From Prostheceraeus crozeri (taxonomy: Eukaryota; Platyhelminthes; Polycladida; Euryleptidae), in contig CAJQUW010003382.1 of the NCBI GenBank assembly GCA_907163375.1, forward strand, positions 52,483 to 116,482: a DNA stretch of 64,000 nt. Direction: 5' to 3'. The notes below the pieces were generated by a model. It was not told the origin of the DNA and did not search any database. It was given only the letters and a program-made list of their open reading frames with translations. Shown piece by piece: positions 41,153-62,866 of this stretch (position 1 is its first letter; every line of letters begins with the position of its first letter). The position numbers and the translations under genes are program-made.

Positions 41153-42575
41153 AGTAGTAAGCAAGTGACAAACACTCGACCGGCGCGCCCCCCCCTCTGG
41201 AACGGCAGAGTGTCGTGGTGTGCCGGCCAGGTTGGTTCACGTTCACGAAATGTTCGCTGACTCCCCCCCCCTCTGGAACGACAGAGTGTCGTGGTGGACT
41301 TGGGCGACCGCCAGGATTAGTCTTGAGGCTATAGTGTGTGATGTTTTTCGTGCAATCTGCTGAATGTTGGGTTGTAAAATGGGCTGTTTCGAGTGGAAGG
41401 AGTGGTCGGATGAGAAAACGGAGGCCAGATTCGGATTCGGCGTGAAATTCTGCATCCGTATGGTGAGTTTCAAGTCAATCGGAGAGAAAAATTTTCGCTG
41501 ACGTCCCCCCCCCTCTGGACAGCTTGCTTCGATTTTGGCTTCCAGTGGCCGGATTTTGTCGTGCCATAGCTCGTTTGAAAGCTAAGAGTGAGAAAAATTC
41601 ACTGAAAGAATCGGCTTGTTCCTATCTGTCTTCGTTTAGATGTGAGACGCCATTTAAGATTTTGAGAGATTGACAAAAAACGACAGAGTTAGAATTTGGG
41701 ACGTTTTGGGCTGTAGCTTCAAAACGAAGCATCGGATTGGAAAACGGATTTCAGATTTGGAATCAGCGTGAAATTCTCTATCTGTATGGTGAGTTTCAAG
41801 TCAATCGGCGACAAAAAATTTTCAACATTTTTCGAAAAACGACAGAGTTAGAATTTGGGACGTTTTGGTGTGTAGCGCCCAAACGAAGCATCGGATGGGA
41901 AAACGGAGGCCAGATTCGGATTCAGCGTGAAATTCTGCATCCGTATGGTGAGTTTCAAGTCAATCGGAGAGAAAAATTTTCGCTGACGTCCCCCCCCCTC
42001 TGGACAGCTCGCTTCGATTTTGGCTTCCAGTGGACGGATTTTGTCGTGCCATAGCTCGTTTGAAAGCTAAGAGTGAGAAAAATTCAGTGAAAGAATCGGC
42101 TTGTTCCTATCTGTCTTCGTTTAGATGTGAGACGCCATTTAAGATTTTGGGACATTGGCGAAAAACGACAGAGTTAGAATTTGGGACGTTTTGGGCTCTA
42201 GCTTCAAAACGAAGCATCGGATTGGAAAACGGATTTCAGATTTGGAATCAGCGTGAAATTCTCTATCTGTATGGTGAGTTTCAAGTCAATCGGCGACAAA
42301 AAATTTCGCTGACGTCCCCCCCCCCCCGGCACCGATCTTCCAACTTTGGTTCTAGAGATCGTAGAAAGTCGTGCAATAGCTCGTTTGAAAGCTAAGAGTG
42401 AGAAAAATTCACTGAAAGAATCGGCTTGTTCCTATCTGTCTTCGTTTAGATGTGAGACGCCATTTAAGATTTTGAGAGATTGACGAAAAACGATAGAGTT
42501 AGAATTTGGGACGTTTTGGGCTCTGGCTTCAAACGAAGCATCGGATTGGAAAACGGATTTCAGATTTGCAATCAG
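41153..42575 (-). repeat. Left terminal inverted repeat of Polinton B
   Basis: Tandem-like blocks, each containing GAATTTGGGACGTTTTGG, TCAAGTCAATCGG and a C-run of 7-12 bases (41188, 41265, 41505, 41990, 42316). Read on the minus strand it matches the right terminal repeat of A (6346-6901) and the truncated right repeat of B (62620-62866). ORFs within it are shadows. Confidence 0.85.
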
Positions 42576-42589
42576 CTTGATGTTATTGT

Positions 42590-42638
42590 CCAATGAGGAT
42601 CATCATCCAATGAGAATCAAGCATTTCTTTATAAATAG
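42590..42638 (+). promoter_or_regulatory. Left early-type promoter: two CCAAT boxes and TATA
   Basis: CCAAT at 42590-42594 and 42607-42611 (17 bp apart) is followed by TATAAATAG at 42630-42638. The start-codon exon lies about 100 bp downstream. The same spacing occurs, mirrored, in front of the polymerase gene at the other end. Confidence 0.75.
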
Positions 42639-42732
42639 CGAGCCTTCCACAGTGAGAATCATTCCATCGTTGAATCACACGAGTGACGGACGCATATTTT
42701 CTCTCTCTATTCTATTCTATTATCCAACTAAA

Positions 42733-43508
42733 ATGGTAAGTCGCTACTTCCCTCCCTCTCCTCCCTTGAACGTAAACTTAATACAATCTTTTTTCATTTT
42801 CAGGCATCTACTCCATCTGCTGCACTAGTAGGACAAAATGGCGGTCAAACGTTACAAGGTTCGCTACGGTCAGATCATCTACAACTGAGGCCAGTGGAAG
42901 AAACAACCAAGGTACATAGTCCTACACCGCTACAGCGTAAATTTAAACAAGTCTTGGGTTATGACAATCATAGCGTAGTACTCCAAACGGGAATGCTCCC
43001 TTCCACGGATGTCAAGATAATGCGCAATCAGTATGGGGACTACATACTGATCCCCGTGAGTCCGTACATTCGCCGCCAACTTGATATTATTGAGGAGTAC
43101 GTAACATTAAATATGGACATTCCTACTCCTCTTGCTCAAGAATGGAGGGCTAGAGATGACAAGGATACTCCCTATAGAAAGATTTGGGATGGTAATCACA
43201 TTTGCCTACCGGTATCACATTGGTGTACTTACTATAAGAAGGAGGGAGATAAATCAATACCCATCAGATGTGATGAGCTCGGGGAAGGTACTTGGGATAT
43301 CCTTTTCAAAGTGAATGGGCTATATTATGGTCGGCATAAGGATAATAAAATAGCCTCTCTCTCCATGCATATGGAATCCATCCTATATATTCCAAAACCA
43401 CCCAACGTGGACGACATAATTGATCAAATCCTTAACAGCAGTGGTACGAAGCGCAAGTCGGAGAAGAATGCTGCATCAAAACGCAAATCAAAGAAGGAGA
43501 ATTACTAG
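42733..43508 (+). CDS. Spliced Polinton protein starting from an ATG-only exon (235 aa), function unknown
   Basis: ATG at 42733-42735 (context AAAATGG) is followed directly by GTAAGT. A 68-nt intron (42736-42803) ends TTTTCAG, and exon 2 continues in frame as Ala-Ser-Thr-Pro-Ser through 30 codons that precede the long frame from 42894. The product has a central hydrophobic/aromatic domain (YGDYILIPVSPYIRRQL, ICLPVSHWCTYYKKE, GTWDILFKVNGLYYG) and a Lys-rich tail (RKSEKNAASKRKSKKE) that may be a nuclear localisation signal. I do not recognise a family. It is the first gene of the left transcription unit. Confidence 0.75.
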
Positions 43509-43542
43509 TCCTTTCCTAACTCTACCCTATGACAATTCGCTT

Positions 43543-43668
43543 ATGTGCTTTGAGTGTCGTAGACGTGGTCTTATTAGATACATTTTACTTCTTCGTTGCC
43601 ATCATATCATTTGTGTATTTTGTCGTGAAAAGCATCGATGTAATTCTTCATTTTGTAATATGTTATAG
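43543..43668 (+). CDS. Small RING-like zinc protein (41 aa)
   Basis: The frame starts at an ATG at 43543. It has MCFECRR near the start, then RCHHIICVFC and a final Cys pair, giving C-x2-C...C-H-x3-C-x2-C...C spacing like a minimal RING or treble-clef finger. It lies between the first spliced gene and the acceptor of the exonuclease-like gene, so on the long spliced transcript it would be intronic. A second, longer RING-like protein occurs at 44745. Confidence 0.4.
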   Translation: MCFECRRRGLIRYILLLRCHHIICVFCREKHRCNSSFCNML

Positions 43669-43701
43669 AACGTTTCCTTAGATGTGTAATTTCCGTTTTA
43701 G

Positions 43702-44250
43702 GCTTCTATCATCATTTTTATGGATTGTGAGGGTGAACCTGTACAGGAGCTTAGTGCTATTGCTATGAACAATTGGACATATCAGATTGTTAGTGTCTAT
43801 CATCAACATGCCAACTGCGATCCCAATGTTGATCAATGGGCGAGAAAACACATTCATGGACTTAATCTGAAATATTTGCAAGGCTATGGCTTTTCTTGTG
43901 AGAGTGCTCTTCTTATTGACTTTAAACGATGTTTAGCTGCTTTCAATGTTATACGCATCTTTTGTAATAATCCTGGTAAGGAGAGGAAAGTATTTCCCAA
44001 TCTAATCATTGATGATATTTTGCTCCCGCCTTGGGATAGTAGAGTGAATCAACATTATCATGAAGTCACGAAACGTTTTAAGGATTTGTGTGTTCCTATT
44101 TTGTCTGTTCGTTGTAGTAGCTACGTTCATAACCAATGCTTCTTTCCTCCTTACCTCAACACTGCCAAAGTCCTGTATGGTTATCATTGCTCGCTGTATG
44201 ATAGTTACCAGCTGTATCTATTTTATCTCTTTCAAACCATTGATTTATAA
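43702..44250 (+). CDS. DEDD-type exonuclease-like protein, spliced to the ATG leader
   Basis: The exon begins after an acceptor (CCGTTTTAG at 43701). Its first codons GCT TCT ATC ATC ATT TTT precede MDCEGEPVQELSAIAM in frame. Splicing from the leader ATG at 42733 gives Met-Ala-Ser-Ile-Ile-Ile-Phe before the D-x-E motif, which supplies the hydrophobic beta strand expected just ahead of the first catalytic acid of RNase H-fold exonucleases. A later IIDDILLPPWD may supply another acid. The assignment rests on this motif pattern and is tentative. The gene ends just before an AATAAA at 44273. Confidence 0.6.
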   Translation, partial: ASIIIFMDCEGEPVQELSAIAMNNWTYQIVSVYHQHANCDPNVDQWARKHIHGLNLKYLQGYGFSCESALLIDFKRCLAAFNVIRIFCNNPGKERKVFPNLIIDDILLPPWDSRVNQHYHEVTKRFKDLCVPILSVRCSSYVHNQCFFPPYLNTAKVLYGYHCSLYDSYQLYLFYLFQTIDL

Positions 44251-44272: not shown

Positions 44273-44278
44273 AATAAA
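44273..44278 (+). terminator. AATAAA closing the left transcription unit
   Basis: It lies 23 bp after the stop of the exonuclease-like gene and before the ATGCAATG element of the next gene. Confidence 0.6.
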
Positions 44279-44337: not shown

Positions 44338-44748
44338 ATGTCTTTCTCAAACGACTGCGGAACATTACATTTTCATAGGCAAAGTTTGAAAGGAGATGTT
44401 CAAGATTATGTGATAAATTTTCATAAAGATGAGACCGAGATCGAAGCAGTGGTCGATGATGCTAGCACTCTATTTCTAGAGTTAATGAATACATTCTCTG
44501 ATAGCATTATCATGGCGCGATTAGTTGCGAAAATTAAGTTTAGTCATTTTGGAAAGGAAGAGGTGGAAAGTCGCTCTTTCCATTTTGCTTCTTATTCAAT
44601 GGAAGTGGTAGATCACCCCGAAGAATTTTTTAAAAGACATATGATAAAAATTGCTGAACGTCTTAACGCATTTAACCATCATGGTAGCAGTCTAGTGATT
44701 GACGCGATTTCAGATATTCACATTCAAATTTCCATAAAGAAAAATTGA
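44338..44748 (+). CDS. Stand-alone version of the domain found ahead of the polymerase (136 aa)
   Basis: The start is ATG at 44338, 31 bp after ATGCAATG. The C-terminal half (SYSMEVVDHPEEFF, RLNAFNHHGSSLVIDAI) lines up with a segment N-terminal to the polymerase in the minus-strand gene (ATEVVDCESW, NIDKFNERDSGLVFDGL). In invertebrate Polintons this domain is usually attached to the polymerase. Here it exists both attached and free. The function is unknown. The stop overlaps the start of the next gene by four bases. Confidence 0.55.
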   Translation: MSFSNDCGTLHFHRQSLKGDVQDYVINFHKDETEIEAVVDDASTLFLELMNTFSDSIIMARLVAKIKFSHFGKEEVESRSFHFASYSMEVVDHPEEFFKRHMIKIAERLNAFNHHGSSLVIDAISDIHIQISIKKN

Positions 44749-45074
44749 AAATGCAGTGGTACTTGATTGTAGCACAATTGGTTTTCGAGCTATGTCTGCT
44801 CACTCTCGAAGTATATTCCTTCTGTACATGCGTCTATTATTTAGAAAAGGCTAGCAAATTCATATCTTCAAAAAGACTTGCTATAGACATCAGTAACGGT
44901 GAAACTATGTGTTGCGATGTATGTAAGCGAAAGGATGGAAATGAAAAGCGCATCTTCAAGAGATGTAAGCATGCTTTTTGTCAACGCTGTTTCATACGTA
45001 ATTGCATTCAACTTTGCCAATGTAACCACTGTGATATTGCTCATTTCGAGTGTCACTTATGTCGCAATAGTTAG
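44745..45074 (+). CDS. Membrane-anchored RING-finger protein candidate (109 aa)
   Basis: The N terminus holds a hydrophobic stretch (LIVAQLVFELCLLTLEVY, residues about 6-23) that could be a signal anchor. The C-terminal half has a RING-HC-like pattern: MCCDVC, then CKHAFCQRC, then CQCNHC and CHLC. RING proteins act as E3 ubiquitin ligases; whether this one does is inference. The ATG overlaps the upstream stop, and the next gene starts 51 bp later. Confidence 0.55.
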   Translation: MKMQWYLIVAQLVFELCLLTLEVYSFCTCVYYLEKASKFISSKRLAIDISNGETMCCDVCKRKDGNEKRIFKRCKHAFCQRCFIRNCIQLCQCNHCDIAHFECHLCRNS

Positions 45075-48128: not shown

Positions 48129-48584
48129 ATGAATCCAACTGTCTCATTTTATTCACGACCCTCCTATGTAAGTGGTGGAGGACAAATTTACATCGGCGCT
48201 CGCCGCCAACGTGGAGGTAGCATACTTGGTGCACTGAAATCTGTTGTAGCACCTCTCATATCCAATGTCGGTAGATCTTTAAAACGAAATGTTTTAAGTA
48301 ATGCCGTTGGCTTTGCTGGTGATGTTGCTAGTGATCTTTCCAGAGGTAGAAGTTTTAAGAGCAGTTTGTTGAATCGTGGGAAGGAACGCGGTTTAAAAAC
48401 ATTGAAGCAGACCATTGCTGGTGTTACTCAAGGAAAGAAATCACCTAAACGAATGAAAAAAGGAAGGAGGAAACATCGCGGAGCTGGTAAGGTGCGATCT
48501 TCAGTCAAAAGGCATTCACGCAAACGTCGCAGAGGCTCTAATCATTCATCAGGCGCTAAACGACGACGCTGCTATAACTTCTAA
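48129..48584 (+). CDS. Basic core/minor virion protein, adenovirus pVI/pX-like in composition (151 aa)
   Basis: The N-terminal part has a Gly-Gly-Gly patch and a sheet-like segment (GGGQIYIGARRQRGGS) before an amphipathic helix (ILGALKSVVAPLISNVG). The C-terminal third is almost entirely Lys/Arg/His/Gly/Ser (KRMKKGRRKHRGAG, KRHSRKRRRGSNHSS). Such proteins condense DNA or disrupt membranes in adenovirus relatives. Homology cannot be shown from composition alone. It lies directly before the capsid gene. Confidence 0.6.
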   Translation: MNPTVSFYSRPSYVSGGGQIYIGARRQRGGSILGALKSVVAPLISNVGRSLKRNVLSNAVGFAGDVASDLSRGRSFKSSLLNRGKERGLKTLKQTIAGVTQGKKSPKRMKKGRRKHRGAGKVRSSVKRHSRKRRRGSNHSSGAKRRRCYNF

Positions 48585-48586
48585 TC

Positions 48587-49864
48587 ATGGAGTGTAAAAC
48601 TTCCGGTTTTTGTTTGTTCGATCAACAAGCCATACAGACAGATATTCTTAGTTCAAGTATTGTAGATTATCATCCTCGAACAGCTGAGAATGCTGGCCCC
48701 ATTGAATTTGTTATTCCTGGTGGTAGTGATGACTACATAGATTTGAGTTATGCGATGCTTGATTTGAGGTTTAGAATTCAGCAAGCAGATGGAACTGCTA
48801 TTGACGATGCACGTAAAGTTGGACTGAACAATTTACCATTGACTACATTACTTCGCGATGTTTCTCTAACGATTGGAGAGCAGCAGGTGGAAGGTGGTCA
48901 AAGCGATTATCCCTATAAATCATATTTCAATCATGTATCACAGTTTCATCCAGCAGCACAAAAAAGTCATATGGAAGCCATGGGATGGTACAAAGATGAA
49001 GCAGGAAAATTTGATGTTGAAACAAACAGTGGCTTTGTAAAGCGATCTGCTATGATTAAAGATAGTAGAGTATGTCAGCTATATGGTCCGCTGAATTTAG
49101 ACTTCTTTAGACAGTCAAAGTTTTTACTCTGTAATACCAGCATGCGACTCAAGCTGACATTGAATAAGCCTGAATTTGCGCTGAATGCATTTGCTAAAGT
49201 TGACAATTTTAGAATTCATGTGGAAGATATTGCACTTTACATTCGTCGAGTAGTACCGAATCCAAGTGTCATTAGAGGACATGCTGAAGGTCTTAACCGC
49301 CAAAATGCCATTTACCCCGTTCAGCATACAAAGCTTCTCACCTTTACAATTCCGAAAGATCAAAAGAGTTTCATGAAAGATGGCCTCTTTCCATCGGAAG
49401 CACCGAAGCTCCTCATGGTGGCAATGGTTGAAAATGACGCATTTAATGGTAATATAAAGAAGAATCCTTTCAATTTTAAACACAATCAGTTAAGTGAAAT
49501 TGCTTTACGTGTAAATGGTGTGAGTCATCCTGGTCCACCCTACAAACCAGATTTTGCTGCGGATCAATTTATGCGCAGTTATGTTGATTTTATGGATGTC
49601 TTTGGCTTTTACAATACGCATGATACCAACGGACTGACTATGAAAGAGTTTAAGAGTGGATATACTATTTATGCATTTGATTTGACTGCTGACAGCGATA
49701 TTAGTGCACCCTATCGTCAAGCGAACGTGCCTCATAATATTCGTTTGGATTTGACGTTCAAAAGAACACTACCTGAGACGATCAATGTATTAATTTATGC
49801 AGTCTTCGATTCAAATATTGAAATTACAAAGTATCGTGACGTGATTCTTCAGTATAATCGTTAA
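48587..49864 (+). CDS. Major capsid (hexon-like) protein, F54H12.2-like (425 aa)
   Basis: The N-terminal region carries the signature block PIEFVIPGGSDDYIDLSYAM, followed by LDLRFRI and a LLRDVSLTIGEQQVEGG segment, typical of proteins annotated as F54H12.2-like. These are the putative double-jelly-roll capsid proteins of Polintons and adintoviruses. The frame is full length and unbroken. Its TAA overlaps the ATG of the protease (TAATG). Assignment as the major capsid protein rests on family knowledge and gene order, not on structure. Confidence 0.8.
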   Translation: MECKTSGFCLFDQQAIQTDILSSSIVDYHPRTAENAGPIEFVIPGGSDDYIDLSYAMLDLRFRIQQADGTAIDDARKVGLNNLPLTTLLRDVSLTIGEQQVEGGQSDYPYKSYFNHVSQFHPAAQKSHMEAMGWYKDEAGKFDVETNSGFVKRSAMIKDSRVCQLYGPLNLDFFRQSKFLLCNTSMRLKLTLNKPEFALNAFAKVDNFRIHVEDIALYIRRVVPNPSVIRGHAEGLNRQNAIYPVQHTKLLTFTIPKDQKSFMKDGLFPSEAPKLLMVAMVENDAFNGNIKKNPFNFKHNQLSEIALRVNGVSHPGPPYKPDFAADQFMRSYVDFMDVFGFYNTHDTNGLTMKEFKSGYTIYAFDLTADSDISAPYRQANVPHNIRLDLTFKRTLPETINVLIYAVFDSNIEITKYRDVILQYNR

Positions 49865-53031: not shown

Positions 53032-53038
53032 TGCAAAC
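53031..53038 (+). promoter_or_regulatory. ATGCAAAC box before minor capsid-type gene 2
   Basis: It overlaps the TAA of gene 1 and lies 10 bp before ATG 53041, or 40 bp before ATG 53071, which may be the real start. Confidence 0.4.
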
Positions 53039-53040
53039 GT

Positions 53041-54591
53041 ATGCTAATATATTTTTCCAATGTGAATAATATGGAAAGTGAAAATAAGGACTCGTTTCTA
53101 ATCTACTTGCCCAGTAATGCTTCTATGAATAAATTTCCCAAAAATAAACCATCAGACTATCGAGTAGAATTAAATCGGCCACTGCATTTAGAAGGTGAAT
53201 GGGAGGTTGGTGTTTCTAGTATTTGCTATGATAGCAATATTCAGAATGTGAATGATTTGGAAGAAATGATATTGACTCCTCGCACCCATGATGGAATAAC
53301 GATGAATAATGCATTTCAGTTCCCATACAATTTAACATCAGATGGAAAGTGGAACTATGAATGGATTCAGATAAAATCAGATTCTTATGAACCATTTGGG
53401 AATGAGAAAATTATTAAGGCATTCAACAGTGGTAATACTTCCATCATGAAGAATAAAAATCAGAAAGCTTATGAGTTTACTATCTATCATTGGAGTGGGA
53501 GACAGTTCCTCCGCTTTCATTCTTTTACTAAAGGTCTTACGCTGAGGTTGGATAATGAATTCTATCCACATCTTGGTTTTGGTCATGGACTCCATCTAAC
53601 ATCAATTGCTACTGCAAATGTTAAAAAAGTTTATTCAAATAGAATCAACAAATTTCATTATAGATTTAAAATATTTGATGAAGATGTTGTAGAATGCGAA
53701 GAACGCATCATTTTGAAAAAGCGTGGTGTTTAACCTTTATCACTTATTGAGTTAGTAAAACGATGGAATGAGACTGTGGGTAAGAAGTATGGAGAGAAAA
53801 TTATGGCGAACAAAAATAAGTTGGTTATTCAGAAATATAATGACAAACTTACAGTTTATTTCTCTCCAACCTTGCGTCATTTTGTAAGACATTATACACC
53901 TATTATTGGAAGCGGTGTGGTGTATGCTTCTCATAAATATCACACTAAAGCTGATTCAGTTAATGATGAATGGTGGGTGGACATCTATGGCGATCACATC
54001 AAGAAAATTTACCAGTCTTATGAAGAATCTAAAGTTGCTATCAATATAATGCCGCGTCTATATCATACAGTTGAAAGCTTCATTCATGTAGTAAATCCTT
54101 ATATACAACAGAAGTTGAAGCATGTGATGAAAAGTAAATATGATGTAAAGACACACCACATTTCGTTTTCAATTGAAAATCAACGCGTTGTTCTGAGACT
54201 GGGTGATGACATTCAATGTCAATTGAGTAAAAATTTGAAAAAACTCTTTGGTTTTACAATGCTACAAACAGTGTTTGCTGCTGCGCATACGATTGGTATA
54301 GAAACACCAATGACACTTGATAAACATGAACAGCACCTTTACATTCAAAGTGATTTGATTCTACCTATTTCTGTTGGTGAGAAAAAAGAATACATTTTAC
54401 GTGATTTCATTCATGATAAAGACGCTTCATATGGAATAGTCGAGAAGATGTTTGAATCTATTTTCTATCATCCCGTCGTCAAACAAACTATACCCTCTAT
54501 TGCTATCAAAATTACCAATGGTTTGCAAGAGTGCATCCATGTGAAAGATACTAAATCCCTCGTAACTTTAGTGTTTCGGAAAACAAAGTGA
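53041..54591 (+). pseudogene. Minor capsid-type protein 2, split by an in-frame TAA
   Basis: Two frames, 53041-53733 and 53776-54591, are in the same phase and separated only by the TAA at 53731-53733. By comparison with protein 1 they are the N- and C-terminal parts of one protein: the residues around the break align with the uninterrupted segment of protein 1. The second part lacks its own good start (GTG at 53776; an internal ATG at 53803). A nonsense mutation is the simplest reading. Stop-codon readthrough, or use of the first half alone as a truncated form, cannot be excluded. Confidence 0.7.
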
Positions 54592-54691: not shown

Positions 54692-54895
54692 CATTGCTAT
54701 ATACAAAAAGTCTTTTTACTTCGTGAAGGGTGGAAATATACAGGGATAGGAAAAATGTCTTTCAGTGGAAAAGTCATCACATGGGGAATGTACAGATGTG
54801 GACACATATTCACAAGGAAAAACAATCTCATGCGATACATAAAACAACAATGTTTATCTACAGAAATCAACATCAAAATACTAAGTTAAGGATGA

Positions 54896-57800
54896 TTATG
54901 CTAAGACGTCTCCTGAATGTGGTAGTGTGGGTTTAATTCTTTTGGGTGGTGGTATGCCTGTATCAGGATGTCCATGTGGAAGAGATATGTTGTGTTCTAA
55001 CCAGCACCTCTTATCCTCCCATGCTGAAAGCGCCCGTTTCCTAAAAGTATGAGTTTTGATCTCATGCGACTTAGATTTTAAGGTTGTCATATTGACAAAC
55101 GTTATATTTTTATTTCTATAGGCTCCCTTGAAATTTTTATGTTTCATGTTAGAGACCAATGATCTTGATATGCCTTTAGCGCGCTTAATGGTATCATCAC
55201 TATCCTTTAATTTCATAGAATACATTTTAGGGCGGAGGAGAATCATTTCAGCTATCTCCTTCCCTGCTGTCTCATCCTTAAAACAAGCAAGTTTGGCCTT
55301 ATTTTTGATGGAGTATAGTGGATGATCAGTAGGATAATTTGATGTATCAAAATATCTTTCTAAAGATTTTCCTACTTCATTAAAATTTAAATCTTTTTGA
55401 GTGGTAATACCTAAGAAGAAACTATCTGTGTCACCACCCAACAAACGAACCTCTTTTACGAGAGGACACGGTTTTAGTATTTTATAGAAGAGTTGATACA
55501 TTTCAAGCTTGGAGTAATCTAGTACAGCTTGACCAATATAGATGGGTTTGCACAACTCAACTTCAGATTTTATCATTTTAACACCTATAAGGTCCTCATC
55601 GATAATGTCTCTATCGATGAATAGAGGTGATGAGGTCAATTTGTGATACTTTTGATCATCATTAACTAGTTTGTAGTTTACGCGCTTTCTAACATCCTCC
55701 ATCGTCTTACCAAATAGACTGTTGTTCTTATATTTATAAAAATCTTTTTCAAAATTATTTTGGGCTAGTGCACGTTTCTGGCTGTTGCTATCAATATATG
55801 GTTTGAGGAAGGCTTTCTGTCTAAATTTAATAATGCGGTGAACTCTTTATAAAATCATTCCCATTTCTAAATAAAATTTTAAGATGCTAAAGTGGACTAG
55901 ATAGTTTTCCTTATCATACTGGGTGAGTAAAAGTTTGCGGCAAGGCTTATACTTGGGTTGTCCACATGATTCTAAATCTTTATGAAATTGTTTCATAAAG
56001 TCGGAAAACATATCTTTACTCACTTCACCTGATTCGGGTGCGAGTGGAAAATCTACGGTTTTATGTTTAATATTATTTGGATAGATTAGATCTATCTCAA
56101 AATAATATCCCCAATCACCTTCATCTGGGATTGCTAGTATGTTAGAAGGGTTGGAGAAATGCTGAATTTCACTATCATCTAACCAGCTAAACTCAGAGTG
56201 AGGGAGTGGTTTGGATAGTGAACTACCATACAAATTATTTTGGTCATAATACTTAAGATGAGTCTGATCATTACCTACTGTTTCAGATTTTAACCTATGT
56301 TTATTTACAAATGTGAGACCACCGCGAATTCCTCGCTCAAATAAATTATACATCTCTGGATCTTGTAAGAGATGAATGGTGTCACCAGTAATTTTAAAAG
56401 CAGACTTAAATGACATGGCTGGCAGACTGACAAAGTGGACGGGATCTAACTTATCTTCTTCTAATGCCACTCGTCGAAACTCCTGAAATACATCAGCCAG
56501 CAAAAATACATCTAACTTAAGGTAGGCAATCATATATTCACCAAATGTATGGCAGTCAAATTTTATCCATGCATCTTGTGCATGATCATAATCTTCAGTC
56601 TTACATTGTGCGCCGGTCAAATCATTTTTAAATTTATCTATGGGCGGAAGAGAAGTCTAGCCGAGTTTACTAATCGCATCAAAATATGCATATGGAAAGA
56701 CTCCTTTCCGTGTGATGACTTCATCGGTTAGATTTGGATATTGTTTCTTAAGATTTTGTGTTAGTGGAAGAGACTTTAGATTTTGCACGAGAGTGGCCAG
56801 TGATGCAGTCATAAATTGGTAGGAATCTAAAAATTTTATATCAAAATAGACCGTCTTATTTTCTTTAGTTTTATCGACAGGCACTTTTGCTGTCATGGCC
56901 ATAAACTTCTCTCTCGTTTGTGCTATTACATCAAGCTTCCACTCTTTCATTTGACTAAACCTCCTTTTATTATCATATGGCTGTCGTAGCCCTTGAAATT
57001 ATGGAAAATGACGGGTAATGTACGCCGTTTCATCCTCAGCGAAAAATTGCATTTTGAACAGAGTGCGTTTCTAAATTTACCAGTGATGTGATCATGGTCG
57101 CGCACTTTCTTAATCTTATCATCGTCAAATGTTTTCCTACATTTGGGGCAAGCGTTGCAACTATCAAATTTTGCTTGATCATCTGCTGTCATATGCAATG
57201 ATCTGCGATAGAGTTCACCATCATACTTTTGTTGAAATTTTACAGCCTGTTCGAGGAATTGTAGGAATTGGTAAATATAATCCTCACCTTGCCAGACGCG
57301 CATTTTATTTTGCCTACTCCTAAAGTGATCATGCCATACTTCATAGCAGGAAATGGCTGCTGGTCGATGGATGTTATCATCGATATAACATTCGATGTCA
57401 GCATAGATGACACGAAGAGGACTTAGTTGATCACCATTCTCTCTATATGAAAACTCCTTATCTTTGGGCATGCGCTCCATTTGTAGTTTACCTCGCTTAC
57501 ACCATTCGTAATGAGTTTCAAATTTAGTTTTCCTCCTAAAGTGGCGAATACATCTGTCGCAGTAATATAACTCTCTACTAGAGTTTTCTAGGTGGTGGTA
57601 TAAGCGAGAGATTTTGGGAATACCGCAGTAGTGCCATTCCTCACTATCATCCTGTTTTACTAATAACAGGTTTACTGTACGTTCATAACAACTCGAACGC
57701 GAGTTGTAGCGCACACCCTTCAATCCTTTTTCCCAAACATGGAGAACTATTTTGATGTTGTTCAATTTTTCAAATTTTTCTATATCTTTAATTTTCATAT

Positions 57801-58837
57801 CGTCACTATTACAGTCATCGAAGTTTAATTCATTCTCCCACTGCCTATAGCTATATGTGCGATTTCGATTCGCATTGATGTCATTATAGTGGAGAATGGA
57901 GAGGACGGCATACTTAAAACATTGCGATTCGCAATCTACAGAAATGACTGCTGCTTTATTTCTTAAATTTTTCGGAAGTTTAAAGGAGCCTCGTCCAGGC
58001 CATCAAAAACGAGACCGCTATCGCGCTCGTTAAATTTATCTATGTTTAATTTTAATCCTTGGATATGAAAATTTATCCAAGACTCACAGTCTACAACTTC
58101 GGTTGCAGGAGAGGAGGGTATGTGAAACTCCAACCTCTCTATTATTTGTCCAGTATGGTGGTCGATTTTTACATATTTTATTTTAAGATAGATGAGCGCC
58201 TTCATCCTAAAATTGTCTAAATTGTTGAAGAGCGCTTCTATCAATGATGAATTTTGATGAAACCATTCCTCAAAGTTAGCAATGGTTTCTGAGGAGTCCA
58301 TCTGGTAGTTCCTCACTAAATTATTTATGGACACTTCAGTGAGTCGGATAGAGGAGGTACCGTTGGTGTAGGTATCGTTCGTGTGTGTATGTTGAAGTCT
58401 GTGCGAAGATAGTTCAAAACGTGTCTCGAAAGACTGAATGCATAAATCGCAAGAAAAGGAGACATCGTTAACAGAATCATCCCTACCTTCGGAGATTGAT
58501 GCCGGCTTAGGTCGACAAACACCTCGCTTGATGTGTCGGGTGAGATCACGCTTCCTCGTGAAGATGTGTCCACAGTCAGCACATTGCCGATCGTTGCCAT
58601 GTCGCGACAATGTTGAATGGACTCGCACGAGATGGAACTCACATCACCTGAAAGAGAAATCATTCTTTCATCTCTGTTCAAGTCTCAGTGTATTGTTACA
58701 ACCTACCTTGACTCAACAACTCTAAACTTTCCTCGAGAAGGGAGGGTGTTGGTGATGAAGTTGATGCCTGAAATTGAGGAAGATGCTATTAGCCACACGT
58801 TTGAGGGAGATGAGAGAGGAAATTTTCAACTTACCAT
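54896..58837 (-). pseudogene. Protein-primed family-B DNA polymerase with N-terminal fingers, broken
   Basis: Fragments run from an ATG-only exon at 58837 to a stop at 54896. Visible are C2H2-type fingers (CADCGHIFTRKRDLTRH; CDLCIQSFETRFELSSH; YYCDRCIRHF), the exonuclease motif YADIECY near 57.40 kb, a Cys/His knot (HDHITGKFRNALCSKC), the exonuclease-III-like KLDVFLLAD, and the polymerase motifs NNLYGSS, NSLFGKTM and GGDTDSFF (55.43 kb). Breaks: frame changes near 58620, 57968 and 56950, and in-frame stops at 56657-56659 (TAG) and 55847-55849 (TAA). Introns 58768-58834 and 58648-58706 are inferred. It should replicate the element, but this copy is probably dead. Confidence 0.85.
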
Positions 58838-59005: not shown

Positions 59006-59058
59006 CTTTGCATATATACTTTCATATTCATCATTCATTGGCTGTTCATTCTGATTGG
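59006..59058 (-). promoter_or_regulatory. Polymerase promoter: two CCAAT boxes, TATA and an ATGCAAAG box
   Basis: On the minus strand CCAAT lies at 59058-59054 and 59041-59037 (17 bp apart). A TATATATG box follows at 59019-59012, overlapping ATGCAAAG (59013-59006). The spacing mirrors the left promoter (39 and 22 bp to TATA here, 40 and 23 there). The gap to the divergent gene at 59116 is short, so the boxes may serve both directions. Confidence 0.7.
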
Positions 59059-61470: not shown

Positions 61471-61688
61471 ACTTAGTGAGGAATGATAGATTTGAGTATA
61501 GTGAGTGGCACTCGATCCCGTCGACAGCCCGAAGGCCTTGTACTGATCACTAGGGAAGTGAGAGATCTTCCCCGATACCCGCTATTTACAGCTGAAGACA
61601 TCATTGTCACTTCCCCGAAGTGGTAACAGCAACGCCGAGTCAAAGGTAGTGAACAGTAGCTGGGATCTAACCCCTCAAAGCTGCCTTA
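61471..61688. ncRNA. Hairpin-rich conserved module, element B copy
   Basis: It matches the two A copies over about 215 bp with scattered substitutions. The GCC-CGAA-GGC and GGGAAG/CTTCCC hairpins are unchanged. The long-range pairing has one mismatch (TAGTGAAC). It lies in the same place, between the coiled-coil gene's 5' end and the terminal repeat. Confidence 0.45.
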
Positions 61689-62380: not shown

Positions 62381-62619
62381 ATATCAGCAATGAAATTTTC
62401 TAAGTCGGTTTCTATCAGAAACTCGGGATTTGGAATGTCCGAAGCTATCATCGGAGCTCAGACAGACGACTTACCGTTGGCAATCTCTCGTCTGAATGAC
62501 AAGTCTCTGTCGGTTCCCAGCTTATATAGTGTGTGGCGATCAGCTGATGACGTAATACCCATCATCCAAACACTAAAAACCCGTCTATCTCCGGTTCTAG
62601 TGCTCCGATTGAGCTGGAA

Positions 62620-62866
62620 ATACACCATTTCCATGTAGAATTTGACGCTGAATCCGAATCTGGCCTCCGTTTTCCCATCCGATGCTTCGTTTTGGCTCTA
62701 CAGTAGGCAGCCATCGCAAAAATTCTAACGTTTTTTCGAAAAATGTTGAAAATTTTTCTCTCCGATTGACTTTAAAACTCTCCGATTGACTTGAAACTCA
62801 CCATACAGATAGAGACTTTCACGCTGATTCCAAATCTGAAATCCGTTTTCCCATCCGATTACTACT
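62620..62866 (+). repeat. Right terminal repeat of Polinton B, truncated
   Basis: It is inverted relative to about 41735-41955 of the left repeat (shared TCTGGCCTCCGTTTTC, CGAAAAATGTTGAAAATTTT and TTGAAACTCACCATACAG). After CCCATCCGAT it stops matching and ends TTACTACT, without the outer G-run blocks found in A and at B's left end. Confidence 0.7.

What the first reader, a model, noticed from the sequence alone, without database searches (positions are those of the whole stretch)
42733..44250. A start-codon-only leader exon spliced to two alternative acceptors
ATG at 42733 is followed at once by GTAAGT. Two acceptors, at 42803 and 43701, both open exons that begin GCA TCT or GCT TCT in frame with long reading frames, so both proteins would start Met-Ala-Ser. 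The first join adds 30 open codons. The second supplies the hydrophobic strand needed before the D-x-E motif of an exonuclease-like protein. One promoter would thus produce two proteins by choice of acceptor, somewhat like adenovirus leader splicing but with the AUG itself in the leader.
Basis: seen in the sequence. Interest (0 to 1): 0.88.

Follow-up and report, generated by a model that had tools for sequence, protein, structure and literature searches.

The report
Shared start-codon exon in a Polinton
A virus-like jumping element in an animal-type genome appears to keep the start codon of its DNA-replication genes in a separate mini-exon that is spliced onto different proteins, and it carries this start module twice, once at each of two promoters on opposite strands.

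Summary
ATG|GTAAGT (42733-42741), CAG|GCATCT (exon from 42804) and TAG|GCTTCT (exon from 43702) are where stated and in phase. Of 48 genomic copies (the window's included), 45 have the exact ATG-donor, 48 acceptor 1 and 47 acceptor 2 exactly. In 45 of 48 the unspliced ATG is out of frame with gene 1. Left/right similarity exceeds all 1000 shuffles. Gene 1 has a single-stranded-DNA-binding-protein fold, gene 2 a DEDDh exonuclease fold, so the module fronts replication genes. A poly(A) signal at 44273 (46 of 46 copies with data) closes the left unit: one pre-mRNA probably gives two proteins by acceptor choice. Not shown: any transcript, or that gene 2 uses this donor (rival donor 42912, phase 0). 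Some more distant metagenome relatives seem to use ordinary contiguous start codons, so the module looks lineage-specific. New variant of a known kind (common-leader alternative 3' splicing), unusual because the shared coding exon is only AUG.

The parts
42590..42637 (+). Left promoter: CCAAT at 42590 and 42607, TATAAATA at 42630
   Evidence: TATAAATA in 48 of 48 copies, one of them with an inserted base in the 11-nt stretch tallied; no ATG in 42640-42732
42733..42735 (+). Start codon, the whole coding part of the leader exon
   Evidence: ATG in 48 of 48 copies
42736..42803 (+). 68-nt intron GTAAGT...TTTTCAG before gene 1
   Evidence: donor GT kept in 47 of 48, CAG in 48 of 48; indels in 26 of 48 copies; lengths 62-69 without regard to frame
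42804..43508 (+). Gene 1: ssDNA-binding-protein-like, 234 codons plus stop, first in-frame ATG at 42993
   Evidence: 0 of 48 copies with an indel, but the copies were ranked by this protein
43543..43668 (+). Small Cys/His-rich (RING-like) ORF of 41 codons inside the long intron; not assigned to the mechanism
   Evidence: selection not established
42736..43701 (+). 966-nt alternative intron, acceptor ...CCGTTTTAG at 43701
   Evidence: TAGGCT 47 of 48, TAGGCC 1 of 48
43702..44250 (+). Gene 2: DEDDh exonuclease-fold protein, 182 codons plus stop
44273..44278 (+). AATAAA closing the left unit
   Evidence: 46 of 46 copies with data (2 of 48 lack the stretch)
59012..59058 (-). Right promoter: CCAAT at 59058 and 59041, TATA at 59018
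   Evidence: same spacings (17, 23) as the left promoter; no ATG between it and 58838
58829..58837 (-). Second start-codon exon and donor, ATG|GTAAGT
   Evidence: 30 of 30 copies, the window's included
58768..58834 (-). 67-nt intron before the pPolB unit, acceptor CAG|GCATCA
   Evidence: CAGGCA in 30 of 30 copies
54896..58767 (-). pPolB unit: exon beginning GCATCAACTTCA, a second intron candidate 58706-58648, then zinc-finger and DNA_pol_B_2 frames (split into several ORFs in this copy; not joined)
41398..42580 (+). Left terminal repeats, inverted copies at 62614-62866

Best explanation
The element (about 41.4-62.9 kb, Polinton/Maverick type) expresses replication proteins from two promoters on opposite strands, each followed by an exon whose only coding content is AUG. 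In the left unit the pre-mRNA runs from the TATA box at 42630 to the poly(A) signal at 44273. Splicing of the donor at 42736 to 42803 gives Met-Ala-Ser-Thr... of an ssDNA-binding-like protein. Splicing to the weaker acceptor at 43701 skips gene 1 and gives Met-Ala-Ser-Ile-Ile-Ile... of a DEDDh exonuclease-like protein. The right unit uses a homologous module to start pPolB. Shown: the sequence signals, phases, promoter spacing, copy conservation, left/right homology and predicted folds. Inferred: that splicing occurs, that acceptor choice sets the ratio of the products, and that one module arose by duplication of the other.
For: Signals and phase. Copies (48, the window's included): 45 exact ATG-GTAAGT, 48 acceptor 1, 47 acceptor 2; essential sites 1 change of 432 versus 37 of 1862 in the intron body, p=0.006. 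Unspliced ATG out of frame with gene 1 in 45 of 48 copies, and 23 of 48 have a stop in that frame inside the intron. Gene 1's first 62 codons, upstream of any in-frame ATG, change less than the intron (69 of 8928 versus 37 of 1862, p=1e-5), with 11 nonsynonymous of 34 changes against 0.69 expected (p=1.5e-5; helped by the ranking on this protein). Gene 2's first six codons, ahead of its internal ATG, have 1 change of 864 versus 216 of 24585 in the rest (p=0.008). Structure: those codons form part of strand 2-10 carrying D-x-E (pLDDT 92.8). Relatives: P0033 reads ..FRFQ|ASTS.. like the window's FHFQ|ASTP; P0014 and P0030 read ..Q|LSIIF. Second module: score 57 versus best shuffle 34 of 1000; 30 of 30; identical CCAAT/TATA spacing.
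Against: No transcript data. Acceptor 2 has a poorer pyrimidine tract. A phase-0 donor at 42912 (AAG|GTACAT) could feed acceptor 2. A TATA-like match at 43384, inside gene 1's coding sequence, leaves room for a separate gene 2 promoter. In 3 of 48 copies the unspliced ATG is in frame and open into gene 1. One of 48 copies has a broken donor (ATGCTAAGT). Copies are young and, on the left, were ranked by the gene 1 protein; among changes shared by two or more copies the gene 1 N-terminal excess of silent changes is not significant (4 nonsynonymous of 10, p=0.08). The right-unit essential-site test is not significant (0 of 210 versus 10 of 1170, p=0.38). Separate left/right comparisons are weaker than the whole (intron bodies: 7 of 1000 shuffles reach the score; promoters 36; exon starts 14). 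Relatives P0036-P0038 of gene 1 and P0020, P0021, P0023, P0028, P0029 of gene 2 seem to start with contiguous ATGs. Divergent families in the same genome could not be searched.
Confidence: 0.77

Rival explanations
1. Gene 1 uses the AUG leader, but gene 2 is spliced from a donor inside gene 1 (42912, AAG|GTACAT, phase 0 after 36 codons), so gene 2 carries gene 1's N-terminus.
For: Phase 0 and a 7 of 9 donor match.
Against: The ATG|GTAAGT donor matches 8 of 9. Gene 2 relatives P0016, P0020, P0021, P0023, P0025, P0028 and P0029 have a Met at or just before the first strand and so need no such N-terminus.
Confidence: 0.12
2. Gene 2 starts at its internal ATG (43720) from its own promoter or by reinitiation, and acceptor 2 is not used.
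For: ATG 43720 is kept in 48 of 48 copies; gene callers start 10 of the 31 relatives exactly at this Met; a TATA-like match lies at 43384, inside gene 1's coding sequence and 336 nt before 43720.
Against: It removes the first part of strand 2-10. The six upstream codons change less than the rest of the gene. No TATAWAW match lies nearer than 43384 on the plus strand.
Confidence: 0.08
3. The arrangement is chance: ATG and donor coincide by accident and the genes start otherwise.
For: 10 of 100 shuffles contain two or more ATGGTAAGT.
Against: Both occurrences have homologous surroundings and a CAG|GCATC acceptor 67-68 nt after the ATG; gene 1 has no in-frame ATG in its first 63 codons.
Confidence: 0.03

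Closest known systems
Adenovirus common-leader splicing (recalled)
   Same: One promoter, common leader, gene chosen by acceptor
   Different: The adenovirus leader is untranslated; here the AUG is in the leader and the acceptor exons bring no AUG of their own at the start
Viral mRNAs that share an AUG exon: papillomavirus E1^E4 and E8^E2, Rous sarcoma virus env using the gag AUG, polyomavirus T antigens (recalled)
   Same: Splicing from an exon that carries the AUG
   Different: Those shared exons encode several residues (recalled); here exactly the AUG, and the module is present at two promoters
Cellular genes with an intron directly after the start codon, such as some ribosomal protein genes (recalled; my searches for them failed)
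   Same: ATG|GT junction
   Different: One gene per leader, one acceptor
Polinton/Maverick and adintovirus elements
   Same: pPolB, rve-type integrase with chromodomain, protease-like and ATPase-like ORFs below Pfam cut-off, terminal inverted repeats
   Different: No such leader in the listings or passages that I saw; the main adintovirus paper was not held

Membership tests
Polinton/Maverick | Type-B DNA polymerase | tested here: met
   PF03175 DNA_pol_B_2, 32.8 bits, cut-off 25.8; protein priming not tested
Polinton/Maverick | Retroviral-type integrase | tested here: met
   PF00665 rve, E=1e-10; chromodomain 2.8e-6
Polinton/Maverick | Ulp1/adenain-like protease and FtsK/A32-like ATPase | tested here: inconclusive
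   Peptidase_C48 19.1 bits, cut-off 20.7; Pox_A32 14.9 bits, cut-off 22.8
Polinton/Maverick | Terminal inverted repeats | tested here: met
   arms within 41398-42580 and 62614-62866; the arms of 69-90 nt are 78-96% complementary; exact termini not defined
Polinton/Maverick | Double jelly-roll major capsid protein | not tested
   candidate ORF 48578-49864 has no Pfam match; not folded
DEDDh exonuclease (gene 2) | Fold | tested here: met
DEDDh exonuclease (gene 2) | Motif I D-x-E and motif III H-x4-D | tested here: met
   E10, H162 and D167 nearly invariant in 30 aligned sequences; D8 is present in the rows that reach it, other rows begin later
DEDDh exonuclease (gene 2) | Motif II aspartate | tested here: inconclusive
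   N89 and E94 nearly invariant, a Glu where Asp is usual; structural register not checked
ssDNA-binding protein (gene 1) | Fold of viral/phage SSBs | tested here: met
ssDNA-binding protein (gene 1) | ssDNA binding | not testable with these tools
   needs an assay
Alternative 3' splice-site unit with a common AUG leader | Canonical GT-AG signals in phase for both products | tested here: met
Alternative 3' splice-site unit with a common AUG leader | Spliced transcripts of both kinds | not testable with these tools
   no RNA data held

The most novel reading that the evidence does not exclude
A start-codon cassette: a promoter plus AUG-only exon plus short intron that exists as two homologous copies on opposite strands of one virus-like element and supplies the initiation codon to the SSB, the exonuclease and the DNA polymerase, so that the replication set shares one initiation context and is separated only by promoter and acceptor choice. 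It replaced ordinary start codons that more distant relatives still have.
Probability: 0.5. Interest if true: 0.75.

Novelty: new variant of a known kind. Interest (0 to 1): 0.62.

Why it matters
If replication genes of such elements begin with a detached AUG, annotation from contiguous ORFs truncates them. Gene callers did start 10 of 31 gene 2 relatives at the Met of MD-x-E and gene 1 of P0032 at MEETTK, cutting the exonuclease's first strand and the SSB's N-terminus. The arrangement also ties the replication proteins to host nuclear splicing and gives a simple, testable switch between an SSB and an exonuclease. Two homologous modules in one element offer a natural case of how viral regulatory cassettes duplicate.

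Tried and rejected
IMG/VR scans for relatives of gene 1, the capsid candidate and the family alignments A1 and A2 found none confirmed by tblastn. One genome-contig scan gave a single 24% match in a bacterial MAG, set aside. Scanning IMG/VR for the leader pattern gave one contig, L080, in which gene 1, gene 2, the capsid candidate and the integrase have no match better than E 0.19; treated as chance. In the 80 loci held then, the strict leader pattern matched 75: 74 of the 78 own-genome loci (L021, L027, L028 and L030 miss it) and L080, not L079. The phage collection had no gene 2 relative at E 0.01. The profile of A1 against solved-structure sequences found nothing credible (best E 0.32). PHROGs gave no function for genes 1 and 2. 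The first inverted-repeat search stopped at 61500 and missed the right repeats; one search found them.

Considered and dropped: a terminal-repeat origin of the module (the right module lies 3.8 kb inside the right repeats, the left one about 150 nt inside the left repeats, so an internal duplication fits better); the small RING-like ORF as a third spliced product (it has its own ATG; none of the three pyrimidine-rich acceptors listed feeds it).

Not answered: divergent families in the same genome, the test that would have shown how old the module is. No request with a divergent relative was ever answered.

Full report
What is there. The window lies in a 2.05-Gb assembly of 14165 contigs that holds many copies of this element: the gene 1 search gave 14217 first-look candidates (not all need be copies), of which the best 150 were scored, 96-100% identical. 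Around the finding is a Polinton/Maverick-type element of about 21.5 kb: tandem terminal repeats at 41.4-42.58 kb with inverted partners at 62.61-62.87 kb, an rve integrase with a chromodomain, a type-B DNA polymerase on the minus strand and protease-like and ATPase-like ORFs with sub-threshold Pfam matches.

ATG 42733 is followed at once by GTAAGT. Acceptor 1 (...TTTTTTCATTTTCAG, 42803) opens 234 codons starting GCA TCT; acceptor 2 (...TTTCCGTTTTAG, 43701) opens 182 codons starting GCT TCT, and its TAG is also a stop in that frame. Between 42640, just after the TATA box, and 42732 there is no other ATG. In gene 1 the first in-frame ATG is at 42993, 63 codons in, so the '30 open codons' of the finding understates the join.

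Copies. Of 48 copies (8 loci, one of them the window itself, and 40 picked down its list of 150), 45 have ATGGTAAGT exactly; the other three are ATGGTAGGT, ATGGTAATT and ATGCTAAGT (donor lost). CAGGCA is kept in 48 of 48, TAGGCT in 47 of 48 with one TAGGCC. The intron carries indels in 26 of 48 copies and varies from 62 to 69 nt without respect for frame; the unspliced ATG is out of frame with gene 1 in 45 of 48 and in frame and open in 3. Gene 1's exon has no indel in 48 copies, but the copies were ranked by this protein, so that count is biased. Gene 2, not used for ranking, has indels in 5 of 48. Essential sites changed in 1 of 432 cells against 37 of 1862 in the intron body (p=0.006). The codons upstream of each gene's first ATG behave as coding: gene 1's first 62 codons 69 of 8928 against the intron's 37 of 1862 (p=1e-5), gene 2's first six 1 of 864 against 216 of 24585 (p=0.008). 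Nonsynonymous changes are scarce in gene 1's N-terminal part (11 of 34, 0.69 expected, p=1.5e-5), though among changes shared by two or more copies this is 4 of 10 and not significant (p=0.08); in gene 2 shared changes are 10 of 25 against 0.73 (p=0.0009).

The second module. ATGGTAAGT occurs only one other time in the window, at 58837-58829 on the minus strand. There it begins the pPolB unit: a 67-nt intron, then CAG|GCATCAACTTCATC against the left CAG|GCATCTACTCCATC. The two leader regions align with score 57; the best of 1000 dinucleotide shuffles is 34. Taken apart the signals are weaker: intron bodies alone are matched by 7 of 1000 shuffles, promoters by 36, exon starts by 14. Both promoters have two CCAAT boxes 17 nt apart and a TATA box 23 nt after the second. 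In 30 of 30 copies of the right region (10 loci, the window's among them, and 20, out of 40 rows listed) ATGGTAAGT and CAGGCA are kept; the essential-site test there is not significant (0 of 210 against 10 of 1170). Downstream of that exon there is another good donor (58706) and acceptor (58648); their GT and CAG are kept in 30 of 30 copies. In this copy that acceptor leads into a frame other than the zinc-finger frame; I described this and went no further.

Relatives and age. In five metagenome gene calls that reach upstream of the exon start, the residue before it is Gln (CAA or CAG, fitting a CAG acceptor): P0033 for gene 1, P0014, P0030, P0016 and P0025 for gene 2. In the last two the Gln follows the Met directly, so an ordinary start M-Q-F is equally possible. 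P0036-P0038 (gene 1, all starting M-E) and P0020, P0021, P0023, P0028, P0029 (gene 2) look like ordinary contiguous starts; P0031 (M-L-I-V-I-I-D) may be another. The remaining gene 2 calls begin inside or after the strand and say nothing. I infer that the detached AUG is derived in a lineage that includes this element and P0033. The DNA of these contigs was not available, and divergent families in the own genome could not be searched (every such request did not complete).

Mechanism and regulation. A poly(A) signal, AATAAA at 44273, follows gene 2 (46 of 46 copies with data). The other plus-strand matches between the promoter and it, AATAAA 43344 and ATTAAA 43106, lie inside gene 1's coding frame. 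One pre-mRNA with a strong proximal and a weaker distal acceptor is the simplest reading: mostly SSB, some exonuclease. This ratio is inference. A TATA-like match at 43384 inside gene 1 keeps a separate gene 2 promoter possible.

Literature. Searches for Polinton with splicing, intron or alternative splicing, adintovirus with spliced and adintovirus alone were seen as listings, at most 25 rows each; one search found nothing and one unrelated paper. Passages on splicing, intron and related terms were read in PMC11071296, PMC11071308, PMC8363768 and PMC12220804; those shown do not describe such a leader (the last reports group I introns in polinton-like viruses). The main adintovirus paper and a nematode Polinton paper are not held, so priority is not settled. 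Comparisons with adenovirus, papillomavirus, retroviruses, polyomavirus and ribosomal protein genes are recalled, not looked up.

On rereading the calls I corrected the second donor and acceptor of the pPolB unit (30 of 30 each), the acceptor distance (67-68 nt) and the make-up of the copy sets, and added the TATA-like match at 43384 and the non-significant shared-change test. None of these moved the odds.

Noticed in passing
43702-44250: Gene 2's closest solved folds are arenavirus nucleoprotein exonuclease domains, and it has nearly invariant E16, C138, H143 and C163 next to H162 and D167, resembling the zinc site that I recall for those domains.
   Followed up: partly
43543-43668: A 41-codon Cys/His-rich RING-like ORF between genes 1 and 2; 32 of 48 copies encode the identical peptide, but too few shared changes (1 nonsynonymous, 2 silent) to show selection.
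   Followed up: partly
44703-45074: A second Cys-rich, RING-like stretch in the latter half of this ORF (seen; no Pfam match above cut-off).
   Followed up: no
54797-54843 and 58528-58574: Inverted 47-nt, 77% matching copies of the pPolB zinc-finger segment, suggesting a duplicated finger fragment just beyond the pPolB end.
   Followed up: no
58629-58630: Of 30 right-region copies, 25 stop aligning to the window here, inside the pPolB zinc-finger stretch, so copies differ downstream of it.
   Followed up: no
53731-53733: A stop codon divides two adjoining same-frame ORFs (53032-53733 and 53734-54591); not examined in other copies.
   Followed up: no
43702-44250: A predicted structure of a Drosophila-associated adintovirus 2 protein (A0A7D4ZHK6, uncharacterized) matches gene 2 weakly (E 0.023, TM 0.50), so adintoviruses may hold a distant counterpart.
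   Followed up: no
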